Assembly (NCBI RefSeq): GCF_021129305.1
Contig: NZ_JAJOMB010000005.1
Location: forward strand, 248,001 to 312,000
Direction of reading: 5' to 3'
DNA from: Kineosporia babensis
Lineage (GTDB): Bacteria > Actinomycetota > Actinomycetes > Actinomycetales > Kineosporiaceae
Length of the DNA: 64,000 nucleotides
In this document: piece after piece, positions 36,903-55,777 of the stretch
Layout: each line of letters starts with the position of its first letter
How positions within the stretch are numbered: the stretch's first letter is position 1
Notes under the pieces: model-generated
What the model saw: only the letters and a program-made list of their open reading frames with translations
What the model was told of the DNA's origin: nothing
The model's database searches: none
Position numbers and translations under genes: made by a program

Positions 36903-37697
36903 ATGGGTGCGCGAGAACTGCTGGCCGTTCCGGTACTGGAGTACGGGGACCGGGAGGTGGCCGAGACCGGCCAGATCCTGCGCTCCACGGTGGGCTCGGG
37001 GCTGCACGGCATCGCGATCGCGGGCACCGACGACCATGACGAGATGGGCGTGTACGTCGAGCCGGCCCACTGGCTGCTCGGGCTGCGCAGCGTGCGCGAC
37101 AGCTATGTGGCCCGGTCGCAGGCCGAAGGAGCGCGCTCCGGACCAGGTGACACCGATCTGGTGATGTACGGCCTGCGCAAGTATCTGCAGCTGGCGGTGA
37201 AGGGGAACCCGACCGCGCTGCTGCCGCTGTTCGCCCCCGAGTCGCAGCTGATGTTCTGCAACGAGCTCGGGCACGAGCTGCGGGGGCTGCAGCAGGCGTT
37301 CCTGTCGCAGGAGGCGGCCCGGCGTTTCCTGGGCTTCATGCAGGCCCAGCGCGATGCCCTGACCAACGGTGGGCGCAAGGTGCCGAACCGACCTGAGCTG
37401 GTCGAACGGTTCGGATACGACGTGAAGTACGCCTCCCACGCCCTGCGGCTGGCGATGCAGGGCCGGGAACTGGTGCAGCACGGCCGGCTGACTCTGCCGA
37501 TGCCGCAGGACGAGCGGCAGCGGGTGCTGGAGGTGAAGTCCGGGCAGGTGCGAGAGCTGAGCGTGGTGCTGGCCGAGATCGACGCGGTCGCGGCCGAGGT
37601 GGTGCAGGCGCTGGAGACCGGGCGCACTCCCCTGCCCGCCGAGCCCGATCTGGCCACGATCGAGGAATGGGCGGTCAGCGTCTACCGGCGTCAGTGA
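36903..37697 (+). CDS. Predicted nucleotidyltransferase (pol-beta superfamily, COG3541-like)
   Basis: A 264-residue protein of the polymerase-beta-like nucleotidyltransferase group: the signature VGSGLHGIAIAGTDDHDEMG contains the G-S...H-G turn and the D-D-x-D metal ligands. A helical C-terminal half follows, including KYASHALRLAMQG. An ideal AGGAGG site lies about 6 bases before the ATG. Family members have no established substrate and often stand alone, as here. It overlaps the convergent GNAT gene by 7 bases. Confidence 0.8.
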   Translation: MGARELLAVPVLEYGDREVAETGQILRSTVGSGLHGIAIAGTDDHDEMGVYVEPAHWLLGLRSVRDSYVARSQAEGARSGPGDTDLVMYGLRKYLQLAVKGNPTALLPLFAPESQLMFCNELGHELRGLQQAFLSQEAARRFLGFMQAQRDALTNGGRKVPNRPELVERFGYDVKYASHALRLAMQGRELVQHGRLTLPMPQDERQRVLEVKSGQVRELSVVLAEIDAVAAEVVQALETGRTPLPAEPDLATIEEWAVSVYRRQ

Positions 37698-41244: not shown

Positions 41245-41670
41245 GTGAAGACTCGACGACGCAGCACCTTGGTGGTGGCCAGCGGCACGGCGCTGTTCGC
41301 AGCGGCGGTACTCACCGGGTGCGGGAACAGCGTAGAGCGCGATCATCAGGGCGTCTGCGTGGACAAGAGCACCCAGAAGCGTGTTGCCGACGATGAGTGC
41401 GACGAGGACGACGAGGGTGCGCGCAGCGGGTACTACGGCGGCACCCACGCTTGGCGGTTGTACGGCTCGGGCCTGCGGTTCCCGCCGGTCGGGGGCCGGA
41501 TCGCGGACTACCCCGGGTCGGTGAGCACGCTGCCGTCCGGGCACGGAGCCACCTTCGGCGGGGCCGAGCGCAACGGTGGCACGGTGAGCAAGTCGAGCGT
41601 GAAGACGGCGGCCGACCGGGGCGGGTTCGGCAAGACCAGCCGCAGCAGCAGCGGGAGCGTGGGCGGTTGA
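41245..41670 (+). CDS. Small lipoprotein (YgiB-like context)
   Basis: A 141-residue lipoprotein with a basic N terminus (VKTRRRSTLVVASG), lipobox VLTGC, an acidic Cys-containing middle (GVCVDKSTQ ... DDECDEDDEG) and a Gly/Ser-rich tail ending SSSGSVGG. The layout and linkage to a glutathionylspermidine-synthase-like gene parallel enterobacterial ygiB-ygiC. GTG 41245 is the start; its stop overlaps the TTG start of the next gene (TTGA). It probably sits on the outer face of the membrane. Function unknown. Confidence 0.7.
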   Translation: MKTRRRSTLVVASGTALFAAAVLTGCGNSVERDHQGVCVDKSTQKRVADDECDEDDEGARSGYYGGTHAWRLYGSGLRFPPVGGRIADYPGSVSTLPSGHGATFGGAERNGGTVSKSSVKTAADRGGFGKTSRSSSGSVGG

Positions 41671-42872
41671 TCCGGCTGCCGCAGACCCCCCGCCCGGACG
41701 CGTACCAGCTGGTCGAGGCCGAGGGCCTGGCCTACGCCCGGGAGCGCAACGACTCCTCCGACGAGTTGCCCTACTGGTTCGAGGGGGCGGCCTACCGGTT
41801 CACCGAGCCGCAGATCGACGAGCTGGAGCGGGTCACCGACGAACTGCACGCGATGGCGATGCATGCCACCCGGGTGATGTGTCACGACCCCGCCACCCTG
41901 CAGCGCCTGCGGATTCCGGAGTACGCGTGGCCGTATCTGCGTAAGTCCGTGGAGGAGGACTGGACGCTGTACGGGCGTTTCGATCTGCTCTGGGACGGCA
42001 GTAGCGCGCCGAAGATGCTGGAGTACAACGCGGACACCCCGGCGGCCCTGGTCGAGACCGCGGTGACGCAGTGGTCCTGGCTGGAGACGGTCCAGCCCGA
42101 GCGTGATCAGTGGAACATGCTGCACGAGCGGCTGGTTCACACCTGGCGCCGGCATCTGAAGGACAACGAGTTCGTGCACCTGGTGGCCGGGGTCGCCGAG
42201 CCGCTGGAGGACTGGAACACCATTGCCTACCTGGCCGACACGGTGCGCGAGGCCGGTGGGCGGCCGATCACCCTGCCGATCGACCAGATCGGCCTGGTAC
42301 CCGGCTCGAACACCTTCGTCGGCCTGGAGAACGACCCGATCAGCCTGTGTTTCGCGATGTATCCGTGGGAATGGATGCTGGCCGAGGACTTCGGGCGGGC
42401 GGCCCTGGAAAGCGCCGTGAACTGGCTGGAACCGGTGCACAAAGTGCTCACCGGCTCCAAGGCGGTGCTGGCCACGATGTGGGAGCTGTACCCCGATCAC
42501 CCGAATCTGCTGCCCGCGTACTGGTCGCCGGACAAGCTCGGCCCGGACTACGTGATGAAGCCGGTGCACGGCTGGGAAGGCGCCGGGGTCAAGGTGATTC
42601 GCAACGGCGAGACCGCGGCCAGCGTGGCCGACCGGCACACCGAGGGGCAGCAGGCGATCTTCCAGCACTACTACGAGATCCCGCGGATCGGCGACTGCCT
42701 TCCGGTGCTCGGCACCTGGGTGATCGGCGGGCACGCAGCCGGTCTCGGTATCCGGGAGACCGACGCAGGCCGGCTGATCACCGACACCCAGGCCCGCTTC
42801 GTCCCCCATTTCATCGACGCTCCGCGCACCAGCGCCGCGCAGGTGCAGAGCTGGATCGATGAAGAGCAGTAA
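41667..42872 (+). CDS. ATP-grasp amide ligase, glutathionylspermidine-synthase-like (YgiC type)
   Basis: A 401-residue protein matching the C-terminal synthetase domain of glutathionylspermidine synthase: LEYNADTPAALVE, FCFAMYPWEWM-like LCFAMYPWEWM, NLLPAYWSP and VMKPVHGWEGAGV with the ATP-grasp Lys, ending with TWVIGGHAAGLGIRETD. It lacks the amidase domain. It should form an amide bond with ATP. The organism probably uses mycothiol, not glutathione, so the true substrate is unknown. The TTG start overlaps the lipoprotein stop, so the pair is coupled. Confidence 0.82.
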   Translation: MIRLPQTPRPDAYQLVEAEGLAYARERNDSSDELPYWFEGAAYRFTEPQIDELERVTDELHAMAMHATRVMCHDPATLQRLRIPEYAWPYLRKSVEEDWTLYGRFDLLWDGSSAPKMLEYNADTPAALVETAVTQWSWLETVQPERDQWNMLHERLVHTWRRHLKDNEFVHLVAGVAEPLEDWNTIAYLADTVREAGGRPITLPIDQIGLVPGSNTFVGLENDPISLCFAMYPWEWMLAEDFGRAALESAVNWLEPVHKVLTGSKAVLATMWELYPDHPNLLPAYWSPDKLGPDYVMKPVHGWEGAGVKVIRNGETAASVADRHTEGQQAIFQHYYEIPRIGDCLPVLGTWVIGGHAAGLGIRETDAGRLITDTQARFVPHFIDAPRTSAAQVQSWIDEEQ

Positions 42873-42944: not shown

Positions 42945-43811
42945 TCAGGCGGCGGCTCGCGCAGCCAGTAGCTGCTCGACCGAACGGGCGGCCAGCATCG
43001 CCACCTCGACCGGGTTGCGGGCGTCCAGTTCGTCGGAGAGCACCTCGACCGCAAGCGGCAGGTTCACCCCGATCTCGCTCAGCGCACCGAGGAATCCGTG
43101 CAGGTCGACCACACCGCCACCGGGCAGCAGACGGTGGTGGCGGCCTTCCTCGCGCAGGTCCTCGGCGGGTGTGGCCGAGGCGTCGCACAGCTGCACGGCC
43201 AGCACTTCGGTGGCAGACAGGGTGCGTAGTTCCTCGAGGGTGCCGCCCGAGCGGTGCCAGTGCCAGGCATCCAGCATCAGCCCAGCGTTGCCGGTGTCGG
43301 CGTGGGAGACGAGTTCGCGGGCCTGAGCCAGGTTACGCAGCGAGCTGTACGGCATGAACTCCAGCGCGACCTTCACGTCGTGGTCCGCGGCCCGGCGGCA
43401 GAGCCGGCGGAACTGCTGCTTCTGCACCTCCAGCGGCACATCAGCGAACAGGCCCACGTTGATCTGCGGCACGCCGAGCAGGTCGGCCAGGTAGAAGAGC
43501 AGATCCTCCTCCAGGCGCACGCCGCGCACGTCGGCCTCACGCCACCAGTCGGTGAGGAACTCCAGCTCCACCACCCGCAGCCCGTGCCGGGCCACGTAGT
43601 CGGCCAGCTGCTCCTCGGAGAACTCGGAACGGCGGGCGTCGAGGTAGTCGACCGCGCCCAGACCGATGCCGGTGAAGCCCGCGGCGGCCGCGGCGAGCAC
43701 TCGATCGGAGAAGCCGACGTAACGCAGAGTCATCGCCGATAAGTTCAGATCGACGGGACTGGTCCGAACGGGAGCACGGCGGGTGGACCAGGGGCCGGGA
43801 GCGTCGATCAT
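42945..43811 (-). CDS. Sugar-phosphate isomerase/epimerase-like TIM-barrel protein
   Basis: A 288-residue xylose-isomerase-like TIM barrel (AP-endonuclease family 2 fold). Metal-ligand-like segments are VALEFMPYSSL (Glu), LMLDAWHWHRSGG (Asp, His), VQLCDASATP and LAVEVLSDEL (Glu). It is probably an isomerase, epimerase or dehydratase acting on a small carbohydrate or polyol. The start may be ATG 43811 or ATG 43733 (MTLRYVGFSD), which matches the family better. It is divergent from the NRPS-like gene across about 260 bases that may hold promoters for both. Confidence 0.75.
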   Translation of the reverse strand: MIDAPGPWSTRRAPVRTSPVDLNLSAMTLRYVGFSDRVLAAAAAGFTGIGLGAVDYLDARRSEFSEEQLADYVARHGLRVVELEFLTDWWREADVRGVRLEEDLLFYLADLLGVPQINVGLFADVPLEVQKQQFRRLCRRAADHDVKVALEFMPYSSLRNLAQARELVSHADTGNAGLMLDAWHWHRSGGTLEELRTLSATEVLAVQLCDASATPAEDLREEGRHHRLLPGGGVVDLHGFLGALSEIGVNLPLAVEVLSDELDARNPVEVAMLAARSVEQLLAARAAA

Positions 43812-44069
43812 CCGTTCACTCTACGAAATCAATGGAACCGGTGAAGCCCTTCTCCGATTTCTCTCAGCCATTAGTGACTATCCTGACTACCGAAACCACC
43901 ATATCCGCGCTTAAGTCTGACATTTCCCAGGCCTCTGACCAGCACTCTTGTGAACCGGAGGGGCGCGGACCCAGGATTCCTTGGCATATTGGTTGCCGAC
44001 GGACTCAACACTCCCGGAATATCCGAAATGCAAGTTTCTGATGGGGCGGGAGCAATCGGGAGGGGATCC

Positions 44070-46715
44070 ATGACAGCGCCGACGGTGCGGACCGGACGCC
44101 GGGCTGATCCGCTGACCCATGCGGATATCGAGGCCGGGACCGTGGCACGACTACGCCATGTAGTCACCGCCCAGTCCGATGCCGTCGCTGTCTACGACGA
44201 CGAACTGAGCCTGACCTACGGCGAGTTCGCGCTGCGAGTGGCCGCCGTGCGCCGTCAGGTCTTCGCCGCAGTGCACCAAGAGGCCGACGCCCCGGCCGAG
44301 CGCCCGGTCGCGTTGCTGTACTCGCACGGCGCGGCCGCCGTAGCCGCTCTCTGGGGGATCGTCACCTCTGGCCAGCCGATCCTGGTGCTCGACCCGCGTA
44401 CTCCCCCGGCCCGCCTGCAGGCGTTCGTCGATCGCGTGGACGTGCGACTGTGCCTGACCGACCAGGCCAACGCGGCCACCGCCGCCGAGCTCGTCGAGCA
44501 GGTCCTGGTGGACGCCTCCGCCGAGAACACCGGCACCGAAGCCGATCTTGACGCGATGTGGGCCACCGCGCCGCGCCCGGGTGACGCTGCGGCCTACGCA
44601 TTCACCTCCGGCTCCACCGGCCGGCCCAAGGTCGTGGTCAACGACCACCGGATGCTGGTGCGCGACGCCTGGGCCAATGCCCGGGCCACCGACTGCTACG
44701 ACGCCGACGACGTGGTCGCCCACACCCTCCCGATGGCCTTCCACGCCGGGCTGATGGCCACCTGCGCAGGCATTCTCGTCGGCACCACGCTGGCCATGTA
44801 CGACATTCGGGCGCGCGGCATCAACAGCCTGCCCGGCTGGATCGAGCAGAATCAGGTCACCATCGTCCAGGCCAGCCCGGCCATCCTGCGCAACCTGGTC
44901 GGCATCGCCCCGGACCCGCAGCACCTGGCCCGGCTGCGCTCTATCACCATCGCCGGTGAGGCCGCCTACGGCCCGGACATCGAGGCCGCCCGCAGCCTGC
45001 TGCCGCCCGACTGCCTGCTGCGCAACCGCTACGGCTCGTCCGAGACCAGCCTGCTCACCGAGTACCAGGTGGACTGCACGCACCCGCCGCTGGAGGGGCT
45101 GCTGCCGGTCGGCCGCCCGATCCCGGACATCGAGCTCAGAATCGTTGACGCCGAAGGGGTTCCGGTTCCGCCCGGGGGTTCCGGCACGGTCACGCTGAGC
45201 GGGCGCAACCTGGCCTCCGGCTATCTGGGCGATCCAGAGGCCACCGACCGGGCCTTCACCCCCGACCCCGACGGGCTCACCCGCACCTATCGCAGCAGCG
45301 ATGTCGGCACGGTGGACGAGACCGGTGCGCTGCGGCTGCTCGGCCGTCGGGACCACAGCGTCAAGATCCGCGGCTATCTGGTGGAGCCGGGCGAGGTCGA
45401 CGCCGCCCTGTCGGCGCTGGACGAGGTACGCGAATCGCTGACGATCGGGGCTGAGAAGAGCGGCGAGAGCGGGGGTAAGCGGCTGGTCTCGTACATCGTC
45501 TCCACCGCGGACCGGCCCAGCGCGGCCGCGATGCGCCAGCACCTGGCCGGGGTCCTGCCCTCGTACATGGTCCCCGAGAGCATCGTGTTCATCGAGGCCC
45601 TGCCCCGCACCGACCGCGGAAAGCTCGACCGGAACGCGCTTCCCGAGCCGCCCGAGGTGACTGCCGGGGGTAGTACCGAGCAGCTCAGCGAGTGGGAAGA
45701 GGTGGTCCGGGCGCTGTGGTGCAGCGTGCTGGCGCTGCCCGACATCAGCCTGGACGACGACTTCTTCGAGCTCGGTGGGGATTCGCTGGCCGCCGAGAGC
45801 CTGATGAGCCGGATGGCCTCCGAGCTCGGGGTGGCCGCCACTGAGGCGCAGACCACCGTGCTGGTGCAGGCGCCCACGCTGCGGGAGTTCGCCGAGCGGG
45901 TCACCCGCAAGGTCAGCGCAGCCAACCAGACCCTGGTCCCGTTGCGCGGCAGCGGTTCCCGTCCCCCGCTGTTCCTGCTCACCGGCGGTGGCGGGCTCGG
46001 CGTGACGCTGGTTCCGCTGGTCCGGCACCTGCCGGAAGACCTACCGGTCTACGCGCTGCAGGCCTACGGGCTGGAGGCGCGGGGCGTTCCGGACTGGAGC
46101 GTGGAGGCCTCGGCCCGCCGGCACATCAAGACGCTGCGCTCGATCCAGCCGGTCGGGCCGTACTTCATCGGTGGGCACTCGTTCGGTGGGGTGCTGGCCC
46201 TGGAAGTGGCCCAGCAGTTGCGTGAGGCCGGGCAGCAGGTCGAGCTCCTCGTGGTGATCGACTCGTTCCCGCCGGACCGCAAATCCCATGCACCGCTGGA
46301 GGGTTCGACGGTGCAGAAGCTGCGGACCGCGCTGGGGGTGGCCACCACCGGCCTGCGCGGCACGCCGGGCGACGACCAGTACTGGCGGTTCTGGCGGCAG
46401 AGCAACTACCTGCACCAGCGCTACCGGGCCAAGCCCTACGACGGCGAGACGCTGATCATCGTGGCCGCCGACAGCGAGGAGAAGCACGAGCGCCGGGCCT
46501 GGGCGCCGTACCTGACCGGCACCTGGCGGCTCACCCACGTGCCCGGCGACCACATGTCGATCCTGCGGGACCCGTTCGCCGGCAAGACTTCCGAGGTGAT
46601 CTGGGAGCAGCTGGAGCCGGCCCAGCAGCGGGACCCGGCCGAGGCCCGCCCGCGCCGGGAGCAGGCCCGGCCCAGGCTGGTGCGTAGGAGCAAGGCCTGG
46701 CCCGACCAGTTCTAG
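44070..46715 (+). CDS. NRPS-like A-T-TE tridomain enzyme with non-amino-acid A domain
   Basis: An 881-residue protein with three domains. Adenylation (about 1-535) has YAFTSGSTGRPKVVV (A3), RYGSSETSLL (A5), YRSSDVG (A7), LGRRDHSVKIRGYLVEPGE (A8) and RTDRGKLDRN (A10). The carrier domain has Ser572 in DDFFELGGDSLAAESLM. The thioesterase has Ser704 in GGHSFGG and His828 in PGDHMS. There is no condensation domain. Where amino-acid-activating domains keep Asp (FDxS), this one has FHAG (His225), so a carboxylate without an alpha-amine is the likelier substrate. GGGAGGGG precedes ATG 44070. Domain order resembles quinone/furanone synthetases that join two aryl-pyruvates. Confidence 0.85.
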   Translation: MTAPTVRTGRRADPLTHADIEAGTVARLRHVVTAQSDAVAVYDDELSLTYGEFALRVAAVRRQVFAAVHQEADAPAERPVALLYSHGAAAVAALWGIVTSGQPILVLDPRTPPARLQAFVDRVDVRLCLTDQANAATAAELVEQVLVDASAENTGTEADLDAMWATAPRPGDAAAYAFTSGSTGRPKVVVNDHRMLVRDAWANARATDCYDADDVVAHTLPMAFHAGLMATCAGILVGTTLAMYDIRARGINSLPGWIEQNQVTIVQASPAILRNLVGIAPDPQHLARLRSITIAGEAAYGPDIEAARSLLPPDCLLRNRYGSSETSLLTEYQVDCTHPPLEGLLPVGRPIPDIELRIVDAEGVPVPPGGSGTVTLSGRNLASGYLGDPEATDRAFTPDPDGLTRTYRSSDVGTVDETGALRLLGRRDHSVKIRGYLVEPGEVDAALSALDEVRESLTIGAEKSGESGGKRLVSYIVSTADRPSAAAMRQHLAGVLPSYMVPESIVFIEALPRTDRGKLDRNALPEPPEVTAGGSTEQLSEWEEVVRALWCSVLALPDISLDDDFFELGGDSLAAESLMSRMASELGVAATEAQTTVLVQAPTLREFAERVTRKVSAANQTLVPLRGSGSRPPLFLLTGGGGLGVTLVPLVRHLPEDLPVYALQAYGLEARGVPDWSVEASARRHIKTLRSIQPVGPYFIGGHSFGGVLALEVAQQLREAGQQVELLVVIDSFPPDRKSHAPLEGSTVQKLRTALGVATTGLRGTPGDDQYWRFWRQSNYLHQRYRAKPYDGETLIIVAADSEEKHERRAWAPYLTGTWRLTHVPGDHMSILRDPFAGKTSEVIWEQLEPAQQRDPAEARPRREQARPRLVRRSKAWPDQF

Positions 46716-46718
46716 GGC

Positions 46719-48014
46719 CTAGCGGCGGGACTGGCCGAAGCTGGTGAGACTGGTGGTCTCACCGGGTTCGGCCACCCGTGGTGAGAGCCCGCCGAGCAGT
46801 TCGTCGTACGAGGTCTTCAGCGTCTTGGGCATCCGCCAGCCCCAGACCCCGTACGGCTTCCAGACCGCCTCGACCAGCAGGATCCGGCCCTCGACGGGGA
46901 TGAAGGTGGCGCGGACCCGGGCGTCGTTGGTGATCTGGGTGCACTCCCGGCCGGAGGGGCGCGAGCTGGAACGGTAGACGCTGGTGTTGTTCAGGTCCTG
47001 GCTCTTCCAGCCGCAGAACAGGGGCAGCCGGGCGTAGCGGCTCTGCGGTTCGGCCATCGACGAACGCCGGTAGTCCATCTGGGTGGCAGTGCGGCCGTCT
47101 ATCTCGACCGTGCGTACCCCGCTCACGAAGACGTCTGGGTGGCTACGGAGCCAGCCTGCCGGGTCGAGCGGCATCGGGGCACGTTCGCCGCTGGGTAGGA
47201 CCACTTCTTCGGGCACGGTGGCCAGAACCCAGCCCCCGCTGGAGAACTTCACCCCTACGTAGCTTTCGTCGGCCGTGGCCACTGCGCCCTCCGGGAGGTT
47301 CAGAGCTACGGGGGCGGCCAGGTGTGAACCTAGGACGACGGTCTCGCCTTCGGGCTCTTCCGGCTCGTCGGACAGGATCGCGGGAATGGACAGACCGGCC
47401 ACCACGGCCGCGAGTACCGCCGCCGCGACCATGAACACCTTGCGCCGGAGGGGGTCTGGGGGTGCGGCTTTACCCCCTTCGTCGATCCATCCGTCGGGCT
47501 GATCGAGGTCGGTGGCCCAGTTGGAGGGGTTGCCCTGGGGTAGGTCGTCGGTCGGGAGCGGAGCGGACGGGCGGGTGCCCAGGTCGTACTCCCAGACCCC
47601 TCCCTGACCGTCGATCGCCTCCACGGCCGGGGCTGAGCCTCCGCCATGCTGAGCGGCCAGAATGGGGGACGTCGAGGGCGGCGCGCCGAGCACACGTCCA
47701 GTTCCCGAGGCCACCAGTTGGGGAGCGTCCGCGCTGGGCACCTCGATGACAGGAGCCTGGTCGTCAGTCGCAGAGCCGGACGCCCCCGGCGCGGCCCAGT
47801 CGGATGACTCCCAACCGGCCGCACCTGGCTCGTTCGCCTCGGGCGGCGGCTCGGACTGGGGCTGGGACGGCGGCTTGGACGGCGGTGCAGCGACTCGGCC
47901 ATCCCGGCTCGCACCGGTGGAGATGATCACTGGTTCTTGTCCCGGAGGGCCCCAGAGCGCAGCCAGTTCTTCCGGTGACATGTCTCCTGAAGCCCGCGAC
48001 ATCGCGTCCGCCAT
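46719..48014 (-). CDS. Single-pass membrane protein with long Pro-rich cytoplasmic tail
   Basis: A 431-residue protein of unknown family. Residues about 1-205 are Pro/Ser/Glu-rich and disordered, beginning with ELAALWGPPGQEP. A membrane helix (VFMVAAAVLAAVVAGLSIPAIL) follows a basic RRK stretch. The extracellular part has conserved-looking segments (GVKFSSGGWVLATVPEEVVL, LPLFCGWKSQDLNN, PSGRECTQIT) with two Cys. ATG 48014 has an excellent AAGGAG site. It converges on the NRPS-like gene with a 3-base gap. Role unknown. Confidence 0.65.
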   Translation of the reverse strand: MADAMSRASGDMSPEELAALWGPPGQEPVIISTGASRDGRVAAPPSKPPSQPQSEPPPEANEPGAAGWESSDWAAPGASGSATDDQAPVIEVPSADAPQLVASGTGRVLGAPPSTSPILAAQHGGGSAPAVEAIDGQGGVWEYDLGTRPSAPLPTDDLPQGNPSNWATDLDQPDGWIDEGGKAAPPDPLRRKVFMVAAAVLAAVVAGLSIPAILSDEPEEPEGETVVLGSHLAAPVALNLPEGAVATADESYVGVKFSSGGWVLATVPEEVVLPSGERAPMPLDPAGWLRSHPDVFVSGVRTVEIDGRTATQMDYRRSSMAEPQSRYARLPLFCGWKSQDLNNTSVYRSSSRPSGRECTQITNDARVRATFIPVEGRILLVEAVWKPYGVWGWRMPKTLKTSYDELLGGLSPRVAEPGETTSLTSFGQSRR

Positions 48015-49440: not shown

Positions 49441-50280
49441 ATGCCTTCCACGAATCCGTACATGCTCGTCAGCACCGCCACACTGCGCGGCGACGGGCTC
49501 AGGAACCAGGACTCGGTCGTCGTAACCGATCGAGCAGCCGCAGTTCTCGACGGCGCATCAGCCTGGTACCCACAAGCACCCGGTCGGGACGGCGGCTGGT
49601 ACGCCGAGAACCTGGGTGCCCGGCTGATGAACTCGCTGGACGAGGAACGGCCCCTGGCCGACATCGTTCACGATGCGATCGAGGACATGTGCCGCACGTT
49701 CGGTCTCGAGCCTGGTCAGTCACCGGAGAGCACCGTCACCATCGCTCGCTGGGATGCCCAGCACGTCGAGGTTTACGTACTGTGCGACAGCCCCGCGGTG
49801 ATCTTCAGCCCCGAAGCCGATCCGGTCATCCTGCTCGATGAACGTCTGCAGTGCGCGGCGGTCCAGGCTCGAACCATCTACCGCGACTACCTCCGCGCCG
49901 GCCACGGGTACGGTCCCGAACTCAAGCCGATGCTCGCCCGGCTTCAGGAGGACGAGCGCCGGGAGCGGAACCGGGAAGGGGGCCATTGGGTTGCCGGGGC
50001 CGTACCGGCGGCAGCCCATCACGCCCTGACCGCCGAGTACCCCCTGGACCAGGTTGCCGCCGTCCTCCTGCTGTCAGATGGAGCATCGGCCGGAGTGGAC
50101 GAGTACGGGTCGCCCGCCGACTGGGCCACAGCACGGCAGTCGGCGATCACCAGCCCGGCGCAGTTCATCGCGGACGTCCATCGAGTCGAGGACAGCGACC
50201 CCAACGGTCAGCGCTGGCCCCGGGCCAAGTGTCACGACGACAAGACCATCGCGGTGATCCAGCCGCTCACCGCGCATTGA
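49441..50280 (+). CDS. PP2C-like protein phosphatase
   Basis: A 279-residue PPM/PP2C-fold protein: metal-binding Asp residues in RNQDSVVVTD, VLDGASAW, LLLSDGASAG and CHDDKTIAVI are in the family order. The usual DGMGG is reduced to DGAS, as in a distinct actinomycete branch. It has no membrane helix and is likely a cytoplasmic Ser/Thr phosphatase, with no linked kinase in the window. It begins just downstream of the tRNA-Asn terminator and overlaps the convergent cyclase by 14 bases. Confidence 0.8.
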   Translation: MPSTNPYMLVSTATLRGDGLRNQDSVVVTDRAAAVLDGASAWYPQAPGRDGGWYAENLGARLMNSLDEERPLADIVHDAIEDMCRTFGLEPGQSPESTVTIARWDAQHVEVYVLCDSPAVIFSPEADPVILLDERLQCAAVQARTIYRDYLRAGHGYGPELKPMLARLQEDERRERNREGGHWVAGAVPAAAHHALTAEYPLDQVAAVLLLSDGASAGVDEYGSPADWATARQSAITSPAQFIADVHRVEDSDPNGQRWPRAKCHDDKTIAVIQPLTAH

Positions 50281-52864
50281 GCCGCACCACCCCCTTCCCC
50301 TCCCGCTTGGCCGCATACATCGCCTGATCCGCGGCATGCAGCAACTCCGGCCCGGTGTCCCCCTCGACCGCCACCGCCACCCCGATGCTCGCCCCAACCC
50401 GCGCCCGCGTCTGCGAGAGGTCGAACTCCAGCGACAGCGCGGCCAGGATCCGCCGGCCGGTCCGCATCGCCGTCTCCACGTCCGGAATGCCCGGGCACAG
50501 CACCGCGAACTCGTCGCCGCCGAGCCGGGCCACCACGTCGCCCGAGCGCACCGAGGCCGCGATCCGGTCGGCCACCTGCACCAGCAGCTCGTCCCCGGCG
50601 CCGTGCCCCTGCGAGTCGTTGACCGCCTTGAACCCGTCCAGGTCCAGGTAGAGCACGGCCACCGATCCGCCCGAATCACGTTCCTGGAGTTCCCGTTCCA
50701 GCTGGCGGTGCAGGTGCAGGCGGTTGGGCAGGCCGGTCAGCGAGTCGTGGGCGGCCTCGTGCTGGAGCCGCTCGGTCAGGGCCTTGCGCGCGGTGATGTC
50801 CTCGACCAGCAGGATCAGGTAGGGGTCGCGGCCCCGGCCGGGGCGCACCGCCGAGGCGGAGACCTTGCCCCAGCGCTCGCCGCCGTCCGGGCGGTACAGG
50901 TGGCGGTCGACGGTCACCGAGTCACGGCTGCCGTTCATCATGGCGACCAGGTTGGCCATCGCTTCCTGGAGATGTTCGCCGTCGCCGAGGAAGTCACCCA
51001 CGGTGGAGCCCAGCAGCACCGCTTCGCCGACCCCGGCGAATTCGCACAGGGCGTCGTTCACCCGCAGGAACCGGCCCGGCTCGGCGGGGGCCAGCGAGAC
51101 CACCGCCATGCCCATCGGTGAGGTGTCGAAGGCCAGGCGGAAACGTTTTTCGCTCTCGGCCAGCTCTTCCTGGGCCTGCAGCACCCCGGTCAGGTCGGTG
51201 ATCACACCGATGAAACCGAGCGGCCGGTCGTCGGAGCCCTGGTGCGAGGTAATGGTCAGCTGGCCGGGGAACCTCGAGCCGTCCTGCCGGACGAAATTCC
51301 TCTGGGCACTGTAGGTTCCGTGGGCCCGGACCGCTGCCAGGATCTCCTCGCCCGGATCCTGACCGTCGAAGTCGGCCTGGTCGTGCAGGTCCAGGGCGCG
51401 CATCCGGCCGATCACCTCCTCGGCCCGGTAGCCGAACATCCGCTCGGCGCCGATGTTGAAAAAGCTTATTCGTCCGTCTTTTCCGTTGGTCCCGAGAATG
51501 GCGGTACCGGTCACCGCGTTCAGCACCGCGGCCAGCTCGGCGTGCGCCTTGGTCACCTCGGCCGCGGCGGCGCGGGCCTGGGTGACATCCTGCACGGTGG
51601 CGAAGACCTGGTCCCGGACGCCTCCGGGGGCACGCTCGATCACGGTCTGGATGGCGACGGTCCGCACGTCTCCGTCTGTCCGGACGATCCGGTACTCCAG
51701 GGCCTCGGCGTTGCCCATGTCGTTACGGATCCGCTCACCGTCGGCCCTCACCCGGGGCAGGTCTTCCGGATGGACGAACGTGTCGTACACCGCCGCGCTC
51801 GGTCTGACCTTGGCCGGGTCGGCCCCGAGGAGCAGATGCAGCCCGTCGCTCCAGGCCTGGGCGTCGGTGGTCGGGTCCCAGCGCACCGAGCCCAGGCCGG
51901 CCAGCCGCTCGGCGGTGTTCAGGTCCTGGGTGCGCTGGCGCAGCAGGTTGGTGGCCCGTTCCCGCAGCCGCGCGCTGATCGAGGTGGCGATCACCACCAG
52001 CGACAGCGTGGCGAGCGCGGTCTGCAGGGTGAGCAGTTCCTCGGCGGACCGGTCGAGCAGGGCGATCCGGCCCAGGCCGTGGTTGGTGCCGAGAGTGATG
52101 ATCAGGGCCGAGGCCAGCAGGCTGATCGTGGCCCGCAGGGCCCCCAGCCGGGTCGCGCCCCAGATCAGCGGCAGCACCAGCAGCGTGCTGGAGACCACCC
52201 GCTGGTAGGTCAGGAACAGCAGCGCCGCAACCGACATGGTCGCGGCCAGCTGAGCCAGCCATTCCAGGTTGCGCCGGTGATCGCGCAGCTGGGCCAGCAC
52301 CTCCCCGCGGCTGAGGTGGACCACCAGGCAGGGGCCGATCAGCATCAGCGCCAGCACGTGGTTGCGCACGAACTCGGACCACAGGCCGAGCGCGGTCCGG
52401 TCCCCCGGGCTGCCGAGCAGGGCGAACACCACCGACGCGACCGTGCTGGCGACCAGCAGGCAGATGAGGACCCGGACCGCGTCGATCAGCCGTTCTTCCA
52501 GGGCCTGGCGCGGTCGCAGACGGCGCAGCAGCACCGCGACCAACAAGTTCTCGCACAGCCCGGCGGTCAGGCCGGCGTAGTTGACCACGGTCTGCGAGAG
52601 CACCAGAACGGACGTGGTGGAGCCGAGCGCGATACCGGCCACGATCGCGGGCCACCAGCGGGAGGGGCTGTAGACCAGCAGCGCGGCGCCGAAGGCGGCC
52701 AGCGGCCACCAGGCGGGTTGCCCGGCGCCGGGGTTGCGCAGCGGTTCCAGGCCCATCCAGCTGAAGCCGAGCGCGGCCAGGGCCGTGGCCAGGAACACGA
52801 TGGTGCGCGCACCCAGCCTCGGCACCCTCGCCCTCCGCTTCGCCCCGATCCCTGCCTGATTCAC
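50267..52864 (-). CDS. Diguanylate cyclase with MASE1-like membrane and PAS domains
   Basis: An 865-residue sensor. Residues about 20-310 form eight or more helices of MASE1 type. Three PAS-like domains follow: one around FVHPEDLPRVRADGERI, a second with ILGTNGKDGRISFFN, and a third with RLAFDTSPMGMAVVSL and PAC segments. The GGDEF domain (LTGLPNRLHL to C terminus) has an intact RLGGDEFAV site, and the inhibitory RxxD is RSGD exactly five residues before it, so feedback control is expected. It has no EAL domain. It should convert a membrane or redox/ligand signal into c-di-GMP. It is divergent from the oxidase gene at 53.0 kb. Confidence 0.92.
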   Translation of the reverse strand: MNQAGIGAKRRARVPRLGARTIVFLATALAALGFSWMGLEPLRNPGAGQPAWWPLAAFGAALLVYSPSRWWPAIVAGIALGSTTSVLVLSQTVVNYAGLTAGLCENLLVAVLLRRLRPRQALEERLIDAVRVLICLLVASTVASVVFALLGSPGDRTALGLWSEFVRNHVLALMLIGPCLVVHLSRGEVLAQLRDHRRNLEWLAQLAATMSVAALLFLTYQRVVSSTLLVLPLIWGATRLGALRATISLLASALIITLGTNHGLGRIALLDRSAEELLTLQTALATLSLVVIATSISARLRERATNLLRQRTQDLNTAERLAGLGSVRWDPTTDAQAWSDGLHLLLGADPAKVRPSAAVYDTFVHPEDLPRVRADGERIRNDMGNAEALEYRIVRTDGDVRTVAIQTVIERAPGGVRDQVFATVQDVTQARAAAAEVTKAHAELAAVLNAVTGTAILGTNGKDGRISFFNIGAERMFGYRAEEVIGRMRALDLHDQADFDGQDPGEEILAAVRAHGTYSAQRNFVRQDGSRFPGQLTITSHQGSDDRPLGFIGVITDLTGVLQAQEELAESEKRFRLAFDTSPMGMAVVSLAPAEPGRFLRVNDALCEFAGVGEAVLLGSTVGDFLGDGEHLQEAMANLVAMMNGSRDSVTVDRHLYRPDGGERWGKVSASAVRPGRGRDPYLILLVEDITARKALTERLQHEAAHDSLTGLPNRLHLHRQLERELQERDSGGSVAVLYLDLDGFKAVNDSQGHGAGDELLVQVADRIAASVRSGDVVARLGGDEFAVLCPGIPDVETAMRTGRRILAALSLEFDLSQTRARVGASIGVAVAVEGDTGPELLHAADQAMYAAKREGKGVVRLNAR

Positions 52865-53032
52865 TTCAACGATCGGGGGACGCGTGCTTGCGCCTGAGTT
52901 GCTCGGCCCACCTCACCCGGTCGGCTCAGATCAGGGCGACGCAGAGTTAAGGGCACCGATGACGGACGGGTGCAGCCGGGTTGGTCCGGCGATGCCTGGA
53001 ACACCGGCGGGCGGGATTTCGTACCATTGCGC

Positions 53033-54214
53033 ATGACCTCGACACCGTCCCGTTCCGCCCGCCCGCTTCCGCCCGCCCAGGCCGATGTGGTCGTGATCGG
53101 CGGCGGGGTGATGGGCCTGAGCACCGCCTACCACCTGGCGGCGGCCGGGGTGGAGCGCGTGGTGCTGCTGGAGGGCCGGCAGCTGGGCAGCGGTTCCACC
53201 GGCAAGGCCGCGGGTGGGGTGCGGGCGCTGTTCTCGGACGAGGTCAACATCCGGCTGGGGCAGCGCGGTCTGGAGGCTCTGCACCGGTTCGGCCAGGACT
53301 TCGGTAAGGACGTCGACCTCGAGATCAGTGGGTATCTGTTCCTTCTGGACGACGCGGCCGATCTGGAGGCCTTCGCGGCGGGGGTCGAGCTGCAGCACTC
53401 CCTGGGCGTGAACAGCCGGCTGATCGACGTTGCCGAGGCGAAGCGGCTCTCCCCGTTGATCAGTACTGACGGTCTGCAGGGGGCGGTTTTCTCACCAGAG
53501 GACGGGTTTTGCACACCTGAGTCGGTGGTGGCCGGATACACCGGCGCCGCGCGGAAACTCGCCGTCGAGATTCTCACCGGGACCCCGGCGACCGGGGTTC
53601 ACATCGAGGGCGGCCAGATCCAGGCGGTGCTCAGCCCGGCCGGCCGGATCAGCACGAACACGGTGATCTGCACCGCCGGTGCCTGGTCGGGCCGGATCGG
53701 TGAGTGGGCCGGGGTGGACCTGCCGGTGCGGCCGCTGCGCAGGCAGGTGGCGATCAGCACGCCGATCCCCGACCTGCCGGCCGATCTGCCGTTCACCATC
53801 GACTTCGGCAGCTCGTTCTACTTCCACCGGGAGGGCCCGGGCCTGCTGCTGGGCGGCGCGGAGAAGGAGGACACCTGGGGCTTCGACCAGAACCCGACCG
53901 AGGACTGGCTGGGCGATCTGGCCGAGGCGATGGCGGCGCGGGTGCCCTCGCTGGGCGAGGTCGGGATCCGCAAGGGCTGGGCCGGGCTCTACGAGATGAC
54001 GCCCGACCACAACGCGCTGATCGGCGAGGCGCAAGGGGTTTCGCGGTTCCTGTACTGCACGGGATTCTCCGGGCACGGCTTCCTGATGGGCCCGGCCGCC
54101 GGTGAGGTGATGCGCGACCTCTACCTCGGGGTGACCCCTGCGATCGACGTGAGCGGCCTGTCCGCAACCCGTTTCGCCCACGACCGGCTCCGCCCGGAGC
54201 ACAACGTCGTCTGA
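53033..54214 (+). CDS. FAD-dependent amine/amino-acid oxidase (DAO family)
   Basis: A 393-residue flavoprotein with the N-terminal FAD motif DVVVIGGGVMGLSTAYHLAAAG, the DAO-family GSGSTGKAAGGVRALFS loop, and the C-terminal FAD-contact segment FLYCTGFSGHGFLMGPAAGE. Relatives include sarcosine, glycine, proline and pipecolate oxidases. It is next to an ALDH7-type dehydrogenase, and in pseudomonads a pipecolate oxidase (AmaA) works with such an enzyme (AmaB), which makes pipecolate the best guess. ATG 53033 is chosen; an upstream in-frame start adds 21 residues without family support. Confidence 0.85.
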   Translation: MTSTPSRSARPLPPAQADVVVIGGGVMGLSTAYHLAAAGVERVVLLEGRQLGSGSTGKAAGGVRALFSDEVNIRLGQRGLEALHRFGQDFGKDVDLEISGYLFLLDDAADLEAFAAGVELQHSLGVNSRLIDVAEAKRLSPLISTDGLQGAVFSPEDGFCTPESVVAGYTGAARKLAVEILTGTPATGVHIEGGQIQAVLSPAGRISTNTVICTAGAWSGRIGEWAGVDLPVRPLRRQVAISTPIPDLPADLPFTIDFGSSFYFHREGPGLLLGGAEKEDTWGFDQNPTEDWLGDLAEAMAARVPSLGEVGIRKGWAGLYEMTPDHNALIGEAQGVSRFLYCTGFSGHGFLMGPAAGEVMRDLYLGVTPAIDVSGLSATRFAHDRLRPEHNVV

Positions 54215-54250
54215 GTCCGCCGTCTGACCGCGTCGTCTGATCGGAGAGCC

Positions 54251-55777
54251 ATGAGCAGCCTGATCCCCGGTTCCGAAGCCCTGAGTCTGCGTGCCCGTAC
54301 CGCCGCCGAACGCTGCGGGGTTCACGGTGAATCGCTGGCCGGTTCGCACCCTGTGCTCTCCCCCGTCAACGGCCTGCCGATCGGCGCGGTGGACTGGGCG
54401 ACGTCCGTCGACGACTCACTCGAGCGGGCTCAGGCTGCGTTCCTGATCTGGCGGAAGGTGCCCGCTCCGGCCCGGGGCGCGGTGATCAAGCGGTTCGGCG
54501 AGCTGCTCACCGAGTTCCAGGCCGACCTGGGCACGCTGGTCAGCCTGGAGGCGGGCAAGATCACCTCGGAGGCGCTCGGCGAGGTGCAGGAAATGATCGA
54601 CATCTGTGACTTCGCGGTGGGCCTGTCCCGGCAGCTCTACGGCCGCACGATGGTCTCCGAGCGGCCCGGGCACCGGCTGGCCGAGACCTGGCACCCGCTC
54701 GGCGTGGTCGGGGTGATCAGCGCGTTCAACTTCCCGGTGGCGGTCTGGTCCTGGAACACCGCGCTGGCCCTGGTCTGCGGCGATCCGGTGGTCTGGAAGC
54801 CCTCGGAGAAGACCCCGCTGACCGCGCTGGCGGCCGACGCCCTGCTGCGGCGGGCCCTGCGGGAAAGCGGCCATCCCGAGGACGTGTCGCAGGTGGTGCT
54901 GGGCGACGGTGCGCTGGGCGCCGAGCTGGTGAATCATCCCGGCGTGAAGCTGCTCAGCGCCACCGGCTCGACCCGGATGGGCCGCCAGGTCGGGCCGCAG
55001 GTGGCGCAGCGGTTCGGGCGGAGCCTGCTGGAACTCGGCGGGAACAACGCGGCGGTGGTCGCGCCCTCGGCCGATCTGGATCTGGCCGTCCGCGGCATCG
55101 TCTTCTCCGCCGCGGGCACCGCCGGGCAACGTTGCACCACCCTGCGCCGGGCGATCGTGCACCGCAGCATCGCCGACGAGCTGGCCGGACGCCTCGAAGA
55201 GGTCTACCGACGGCTGCCGGTGGGTGATCCGACGGCCGAGGGCACTCTGGTGGGACCACTGATCGACGCGAGCGCACACACGTCTCTCATCGGTGCTCTG
55301 AAACAGGCCGTCGAAGAGGGCGGAAGCGTTGTCGCCGGCGGCGATCGGGAGCTGGAAACCGCGGCGCCGGAGGCCTTCTACCACCGGCCGGCCCTGGTCC
55401 GGATGCCTGGGCAGAGCCCGATCGTGCAGGCCGAGACCTTCGCGCCGATCCTCTATCTGCTCACCTACGACGATTTCGCCGAGGCGATCGCCCTGAACAA
55501 CGCCGTTGCGCAGGGCCTCTCGTCGGCGGTCTTCACCCGTGACCAGGCCGAGGCCGAGCTGTTCCTGTCGGCCGAGGGCTCGGACTGCGGCATCGTCAAC
55601 GTCAACATCGGCACTTCCGGCGCCGAGATCGGCGGGGCGTTCGGCGGCGAGAAGGAGACCGGCGGCGGCCGGGAGTCCGGATCCGACGCCTGGCGGGCCT
55701 ACATGCGGCGGGCGACGAACACGGTCAACTACTCGGGCGAGCTTCCGCTGGCGCAGGGCGTGGACTTCACGGTGTGA
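54251..55777 (+). CDS. ALDH7-type aldehyde dehydrogenase (aminoadipate semialdehyde dehydrogenase)
   Basis: A 508-residue NAD-dependent aldehyde dehydrogenase. The catalytic Cys is in GTAGQRCTTLRR and the Glu in LLELGGNNAAVV. The family-7 hallmark GAEIGGAFGGEKETGGG followed by RESGSDAWRAYMRR is characteristic of antiquitin/AmaB, which oxidises alpha-aminoadipate semialdehyde (piperideine-6-carboxylate). Following a DAO-type oxidase by 36 bases, it completes a two-step route from pipecolate to 2-aminoadipate in lysine catabolism. Substrate assignment is inferred from the family motif and context. Confidence 0.88.
   Translation: MSSLIPGSEALSLRARTAAERCGVHGESLAGSHPVLSPVNGLPIGAVDWATSVDDSLERAQAAFLIWRKVPAPARGAVIKRFGELLTEFQADLGTLVSLEAGKITSEALGEVQEMIDICDFAVGLSRQLYGRTMVSERPGHRLAETWHPLGVVGVISAFNFPVAVWSWNTALALVCGDPVVWKPSEKTPLTALAADALLRRALRESGHPEDVSQVVLGDGALGAELVNHPGVKLLSATGSTRMGRQVGPQVAQRFGRSLLELGGNNAAVVAPSADLDLAVRGIVFSAAGTAGQRCTTLRRAIVHRSIADELAGRLEEVYRRLPVGDPTAEGTLVGPLIDASAHTSLIGALKQAVEEGGSVVAGGDRELETAAPEAFYHRPALVRMPGQSPIVQAETFAPILYLLTYDDFAEAIALNNAVAQGLSSAVFTRDQAEAELFLSAEGSDCGIVNVNIGTSGAEIGGAFGGEKETGGGRESGSDAWRAYMRRATNTVNYSGELPLAQGVDFTV

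What the first reader, a model, noticed from the sequence alone, without database searches (positions are those of the whole stretch)
44070..46715. Compact A-T-TE enzyme with no condensation domain and no amino-acid-binding Asp
The sequence shows a complete adenylation, carrier and thioesterase set in one 881-residue protein. Aligning the A4 region without gaps to amino-acid-activating domains puts His225 (FHAG) where the alpha-amine-binding Asp (FDxS) belongs. Established knowledge: A-T-TE enzymes such as AtrA and RalA load aryl-pyruvates and join two of them into quinones or furanones. Inference: this may be an uncharacterised keto- or hydroxy-acid dimerising or hydrolysing enzyme with a small local cluster.
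Basis: partly seen in the sequence, partly recalled or inferred. Interest (0 to 1): 0.7.

Follow-up and report, generated by a model that had tools for sequence, protein, structure and literature searches.

The report
Stand-alone synthetase that avoids amino acids
A soil bacterium carries a one-piece peptide-synthetase-like enzyme whose pocket has lost the residue that grips amino acids; it belongs to an apparently undescribed family that probably activates and joins or transfers some other organic acid.

Summary
Window 44070-46715 (+) encodes adenylation (A), carrier (T) and thioesterase (TE) domains with no condensation domain. His225 falls at the GrsA Asp235 position, and the whole 10-residue code (HAMQTARLLK) has no acidic residue to bind an amine.

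The gene belongs to a clade of 44 A-T-TE rows (100/100 support, stem 0.99). None has Asp235: the residue is His, Tyr, Ile, Ala or Gly by subclade. The orthologue is in 6 of 6 genomes of the genus searched, under purifying selection. It is divergently paired with a TIM-barrel isomerase-like gene across an intergenic stretch whose 13-mer occurs once per genome, only there. In Frankia-like genomes the Ile subclade is followed by an FMN alpha-hydroxy-acid dehydrogenase gene in 8 of 8 loci fetched, the best context support for keto/hydroxy-acid chemistry, though in a sister subclade.

Membership among the quinone/furanone synthetases (AtrA, RalA) is not shown: Val is their mark, this has His, and the pocket carries an Arg. 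Substrate and product are unproven. Verdict: new variant of a known kind.

The parts
44070..46715 (+). 881-aa A-T-TE protein (AMP-binding, AMP-binding_C, PP-binding, Thioesterase)
44742..44744 (+). codon of His225 at the GrsA Asp235 position
45027..45029 (+). codon of Arg320 at GrsA position 322; Arg or Lys in all 12 rows of the His/Tyr subclade
45036..45038 (+). codon of Ser323, where amino-acid A domains usually have the Pro of YGPTE (LgrA Pro483) and StsA has Met415
45783..45785 (+). codon of carrier Ser572 (phosphopantetheine site)
46179..46181 (+). codon of thioesterase nucleophile Ser704 (GHSFGG)
43812..44069 (.). divergent intergenic region shared by the A-T-TE and the TIM-barrel gene
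43980..43992 (+). CTTGGCATATTGG, once per genome in 6 of 6 genomes of the genus, always at this locus
43850..43867 (+). TTCTCCGATTTCTCTCAG, exact only here in 4 of 6 genomes, 1 mismatch in one, 3 in one
42945..43811 (-). AP_endonuc_2 TIM-barrel isomerase/epimerase-like protein (best PDB sequence matches Lmo2234 and IolI), conserved divergent partner
41397..42872 (+). YgiC/YjfC-like ATP-grasp acid-amine ligase, conserved neighbour but also found in genomes of the family without the A-T-TE; probably not part of the unit

Best explanation
This is a stand-alone, single-substrate synthetase of an apparently undescribed actinobacterial A-T-TE family. The A domain uses ATP to activate a carboxylic acid that has no alpha-amine, most likely a polar or acidic 2-hydroxy- or 2-oxo-acid held by His225 and Arg320. 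The acyl group goes to the phosphopantetheine on Ser572, then to Ser704 of the thioesterase, which releases it by joining it to a second acyl unit (self-dimerisation as in AtrA/RalA) or to a hydroxyl of another molecule. The divergent TIM-barrel isomerase probably makes or reshapes the acid. Shown: domains, catalytic residues, loss of Asp235, clade, conserved pair and cis elements. Inferred: substrate class, role of His/Arg, product.
For: Domains and catalytic residues are intact. The AlphaFold2 model (mean pLDDT 84) matches EntF, AB3403, ObiF1 and SrfA-C termination modules best. The code HAMQTARLLK has no acidic residue. The clade of 44 rows, none with Asp235, has 100/100 support; 18 of its members scanned with Pfam, 12 of them as whole open frames, show no condensation domain. 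Ile235 members are followed by an FMN_dh gene in 8 of 8 loci fetched. TIM-barrel partner in 6 of 6 genomes of the genus and 0 of 7 others of the family; locus-specific 13-mer in 6 of 6. Purifying selection.
Against: No characterised relative was found, so the substrate rests on pocket analogy. The keto- and hydroxy-acid A domains named in the passages I read have Val, Ile, Ala or Gly at position 235, not His, and one proposed keto-acid domain keeps Asp235 (HcaB), so the residue is not an absolute rule. The non-Pro YGxxE residue is weak evidence: several Asp235 domains of the same genome also lack Pro. FMN_dh is adjacent only in the Ile subclade, not in this genus. By sequence and fold the best matches are amino-acid NRPS modules.
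Confidence: 0.5

Rival explanations
1. It is a quinone/furanone synthetase of the AtrA/RalA/EchA kind that dimerises an aromatic 2-oxo acid such as phenylpyruvate or indolepyruvate.
For: Same three-domain layout without condensation domain, and loss of Asp235. Non-reducing A-T-TE enzymes are described as dimerising aromatic keto acids (PMC9047271 abstract start; PMC10316625 passages).
Against: Val is given as the first code residue of keto-acid-activating enzymes; here it is His, with Gln, Thr and Arg in the pocket. No aminotransferase or aromatic-amino-acid gene was seen among the neighbours scanned between 36 and 56 kb.
Confidence: 0.12
2. It activates an acid and transfers it to a nucleophile other than itself (a polyol, sugar, lipid head group or amine), an acyl-transferring synthetase rather than a dimerase.
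For: A thioesterase can use an outside nucleophile (established knowledge); the partner gene is sugar-isomerase-like; the main Ala subclade in Frankia-like genomes sits in a conserved neighbourhood (exonuclease III, HSP20, DUF4230, SpoIIE-type) with no visible pathway genes.
Against: No acceptor or acceptor-making gene is consistently linked; nothing tested separates this from dimerisation.
Confidence: 0.25
3. It still activates an amino acid (for example a beta- or amine-distal amino acid) with an unusual amine-binding mode.
For: Foldseek and phmmer best matches are amino-acid NRPS modules; three other domains of the same genome lack Asp235 but have Asp at 236.
Against: No acidic residue at any of the ten code positions, and Ala at 236; none of 44 clade rows has Asp235.
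Confidence: 0.1

Closest known systems
Fungal and bacterial A-T-TE quinone/furanone synthetases (AtrA, HapA, RalA, EchA; TdiA recalled)
   Same: A-T-TE layout, no condensation domain, Asp235 lost, catalytic TE residues present
   Different: His225 instead of Val, Arg320 in the pocket; kinship not tested because their sequences were not at hand
Keto-acid A domain StsA of cereulide-type synthetases
   Same: Asp235 lost and the YGPTE Pro replaced; the Frankia-like Ile subclade has the same residue as StsA
   Different: His rather than Ile here; no ketoreductase domain; A-T-TE protein
NRPS termination modules (EntF, SrfA-C, AB3403, ObiF1)
   Same: A-T-TE order and fold; best structural matches
   Different: They carry a C domain; EntF and the other Asp235 rows fall outside the family clade
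EntE aryl-acid ligase
   Same: Adenylates a non-amino acid
   Different: EntE groups with acyl-CoA-ligase-like rows away from this clade and uses a separate carrier protein (recalled)

Membership tests
AtrA/RalA-type quinone or furanone synthetase | A-T-TE without condensation domain | tested here: met
[quoted passage not shown]
   His225
AtrA/RalA-type quinone or furanone synthetase | Catalytic TE residues present | tested here: met
   Ser704, Asp731, His828
AtrA/RalA-type quinone or furanone synthetase | Common clade with RalA, EchA or AtrA | not tested
   Sequences not at hand; one request returned no record
AtrA/RalA-type quinone or furanone synthetase | Dimerises an aromatic 2-oxo acid | not testable with these tools
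   Needs an assay
Amino-acid-activating NRPS A domain | Asp235 for the alpha-amine | tested here: not met
Amino-acid-activating NRPS A domain | YGPTE proline | tested here: not met
   Ser323; weak, since several Asp235 domains of the genome also lack it
Amino-acid-activating NRPS A domain | Catalytic A10 lysine (GrsA Lys517) | tested here: met
   Lys518
StsA-type keto-acid A domain | Hydrophobic/aliphatic residue in place of Asp235 | tested here: not met
   His here; met in the Ile and Ala subclades
StsA-type keto-acid A domain | Non-proline at StsA Met415 / LgrA Pro483 | tested here: met
   Ser323
Actinobacterial Asp-less A-T-TE family (defined here) | Falls in the 44-row clade, A-T-TE, no Asp235 | tested here: met

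The most novel reading that the evidence does not exclude
An undescribed family of actinobacterial acid-joining synthetases, kept as a conserved gene in Kineosporia and as two paralogues in at least 10 Frankia-like genomes. Residue 235 has been retuned by subclade to different non-amino acids, and the His/Arg subclade uses a positively charged pocket to take a hydroxy- or oxo-dicarboxylic acid and make a new class of dimer or ester.
Probability: 0.25. Interest if true: 0.65.

Novelty: new variant of a known kind. Interest (0 to 1): 0.48.

Why it matters
If right, there is a clade of one-protein synthetases in soil actinomycetes and in nifH-bearing Frankia-like genomes, with an unknown but strongly conserved product. 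Searches keyed on condensation domains would miss them. The natural series His/Tyr/Ile/Ala/Gly at one pocket position is a ready set for learning how A domains move from amino acids to other acids.

Tried and rejected
Considered and set aside. (1) The TIM-barrel partner as a 3-dehydroshikimate dehydratase feeding an aryl acid: its QuiC match is weak (62.5 bits against a cut-off of 1200) and the best PDB sequence matches are Lmo2234 and IolI. A remote homologue beside one Frankia-like A-T-TE (L050) clustered only at blastp level and did not appear with tblastn at 1e-8, so I draw little from it. (2) The ATP-grasp neighbour as a partner: it occurs in 10 of 13 genomes of the family, three of them without the A-T-TE at 1e-100. 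(3) A Frankia hopanoid-ester role: one literature search listed nothing that I saw to bear on it. (4) The 13-mer as a sigma-70 or sigma-54 promoter: no sigma-70 match in 43700-46950, and a possible sigma-54 spacing is not kept in all six sequences (by eye). (5) The second copy of the TIM-barrel gene in G396 (L099) has no informative neighbour among eight proteins scanned. (6) Other members have scattered neighbours (BenE transporter, aldehyde dehydrogenase, aromatic lyase, 3-dehydroquinate synthase II) without a common theme. (7) Plasmid records: the 40 rows shown of 815 records are at about 29-34% identity and annotated, where annotated, mostly as NRPS. (8) Papers: the listings showed nothing that I recognised as describing this family; beyond listings I saw only passages of five papers. 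Most subscription papers are not in that library.

Rows dropped before counting: the tree leaves out L001, L002 and L010 (the same genes as other rows), all rows of L005 to L009 (fragments or other proteins) and segments under 250 residues (relatives) or 230 (other A domains); L023 and L050 are the same gene and both count among the 44. In one search, 6 of 9 proteins were slices around the match, 3 whole open frames; all 9 were whole open frames as held in the loci.

Full report
What is there. The frame at 44070-46715 (+) gives 881 residues with AMP-binding, AMP-binding_C, PP-binding and Thioesterase domains above Pfam cut-offs and no condensation domain. Codon bias favours this strand. The carrier serine (572) and the thioesterase Ser704, Asp731 and His828 are present; over the 58-row alignment, which includes some distant or partial rows, these columns read Ser in 58 of 58, Ser in 56 of 56 with a residue, Asp in 56 of 56, and His in 52 of 54 (one Arg, one Tyr). 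The AlphaFold2 model (33-row alignment, mean pLDDT 84.2, pTM 0.61) matches EntF, AB3403, ObiF1 and SrfA-C best by Foldseek. Relative domain placement is uncertain at that pTM.

The pocket. phmmer pairs FH with the FD of both LgrA A domains, with one-residue gaps a few positions away. A MAFFT alignment with GrsA, whose numbering was confirmed against 1amu, puts His225 at Asp235 with no gap between the two sequences there and gives the ten-residue code H A M Q T A R L L K. There is no acidic residue in the code, so no obvious counter-charge for a substrate amine. Arg320 sits at GrsA position 322 and is Arg or Lys in all 12 rows of the same subclade. Ser323 replaces the Pro of YGPTE; that Pro is LgrA Pro483 (my count from the alignment), the residue that is Met415 in the keto-acid domain StsA (PMC11253843, passages). 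This second mark is weak, because several Asp235 domains of the same genome also lack that Pro. As a control, 40 other A-domain rows from the same genome, taken from 20 fetched stretches, gave Asp in 30, another residue in 5 (three Val followed by Asp at 236, which I recall as a beta-alanine-like code, and two that look like acyl-CoA ligases) and no aligned residue in 5.

The family. A search of 394 genomes of the class found 121 with a match at 1e-60; many of these are ordinary NRPS modules in long frames, but the top of the list is A-T-TE proteins at 36-49% identity. Searches of the genus (6 genomes) and family (13) found orthologues in 6 of 6 and in 7 of 13 at 1e-100. Eighteen members scanned with Pfam show A, T and TE and no condensation domain; the only other families are alpha/beta-hydrolase models over the same TE (12 of the 18 were whole open frames). 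In a tree of 89 A domains, 44 rows form one clade with 100/100 support and a long stem (0.99 changes per column); none has Asp235 (bootstrap not fully settled, so values are rough; one gene is counted twice). The residue goes with subclade: His in this genus and in G402, G273 and G081; Tyr in the genus's second copies (3 of 6 genomes); Ile and Ala in family f26; Ala in G028; Gly in three members of f12. At least 10 genomes of f26 hold two copies of 40% identity or more (which scored only the best two candidates of each genome). The window genome is most likely a Kineosporia by its named relatives, K. rhizophila (86%) and K. mesophila (81%). A profile search of 396 genomes of the phylum found 5 with a match at 1e-180, the window's own included, so the family looks uncommon, although that sample gave no f26 match and so underweights it.

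Neighbours. In 6 of 6 genomes of the genus the A-T-TE is divergently paired with a TIM-barrel protein of the AP_endonuc_2 family that has no match at 1e-20 in the 7 other genomes of the family searched; G396 has a second copy elsewhere. The shared intergenic region holds CTTGGCATATTGG, which occurs exactly once in each of the 6 genomes and only there, with none for the reversed control, and TTCTCCGATTTCTCTCAG, exact only there in 4 of 6, with 1 mismatch in G398 and 3 in G394 (other 3-mismatch matches occur elsewhere). I read this as a co-regulated two-gene unit. The ATP-grasp gene further upstream is also conserved but occurs in genomes without the A-T-TE. Outer flanks differ between most of the species. 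In the Ile subclade of f26 an FMN-dependent alpha-hydroxy-acid dehydrogenase gene follows the A-T-TE in 8 of 8 loci fetched; it was not found by tblastn at 1e-8 at any other locus fetched by then, though many of those have only about 1.5 kb of flank. Such enzymes turn 2-hydroxy acids into 2-oxo acids (established knowledge), and Ile is the residue StsA has, so for that subclade a keto-acid substrate is a reasonable inference. For the window protein the step from sister subclade to substrate is an inference only.

How it most likely works. Shown: intact catalytic parts, loss of the amine-binding Asp, clade, pairing, selection (dN 0.08-0.14 against dS 0.45-0.55, five pairs). Inferred: ATP-dependent activation of a non-amino acid, probably a polar or acidic 2-hydroxy or 2-oxo acid; loading on Ser572; transfer to Ser704; release by condensation with a second acyl unit or an outside hydroxyl. 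Plain hydrolysis would be futile, so I rank joining or transfer above it. The dimerisation precedent comes from AtrA/RalA-type enzymes (PMC10316625 passages; PMC9047271 abstract start; RalA and EchA chemistry recalled), but the present protein fails their Val mark, so it is not filed among them.

Novelty. Stand-alone A-T-TE enzymes are known. A monophyletic actinobacterial branch with His or Tyr at position 235 and a charged pocket was not recognisable in the papers listed by my searches, which cover only an open-access library. PMC3848822 (passages) reports few NRPS clusters shared between Frankia strains; if f26 is Frankiaceae, this family may have been passed over there because it has no condensation domain (inference; I did not check that paper's method).

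Noticed in passing
window 52970-55777: FAD-dependent amine/amino-acid oxidase (DAO) followed by an L-piperidine-6-carboxylate dehydrogenase above NCBIfam cut-off (785.5 bits against 730): looks like a lysine or pipecolate breakdown pair.
   Followed up: no
window 50267-52864: MASE1-PAS-GGDEF diguanylate cyclase of 865 aa, conserved nearby in K. rhizophila.
   Followed up: no
window 36903-37697: RlaP-family (RNA repair pathway polymerase-beta-like) protein.
   Followed up: no
L080 (G000:C6:215000-230000): Three A domains in one frame with the code VDTLVSFGDK, which I recall as beta-alanine-like: an unexamined NRPS in the same genome.
   Followed up: no
L065, L066, L067: Second A-T-TE copy in 3 of 6 genomes of the genus, with Tyr at position 235 and unlike neighbours (one beside an aromatic amino acid lyase): possible neofunctionalised paralogue.
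   Followed up: partly
L042, L044, L046, L047, L049, L050: A-T-TE plus FMN alpha-hydroxy-acid dehydrogenase pair in Frankia-like genomes, with two 2-hydroxy-3-oxopropionate-reductase-like proteins and an SDR upstream in one (L050): a small uncharacterised cluster.
   Followed up: partly
L058:10994-11674: In G118 a 226-aa reading that matches only the first part of AMP-binding (positions 2-94 of 384) lies just upstream of the A-T-TE; possibly the remnant of a second adenylation gene.
   Followed up: no
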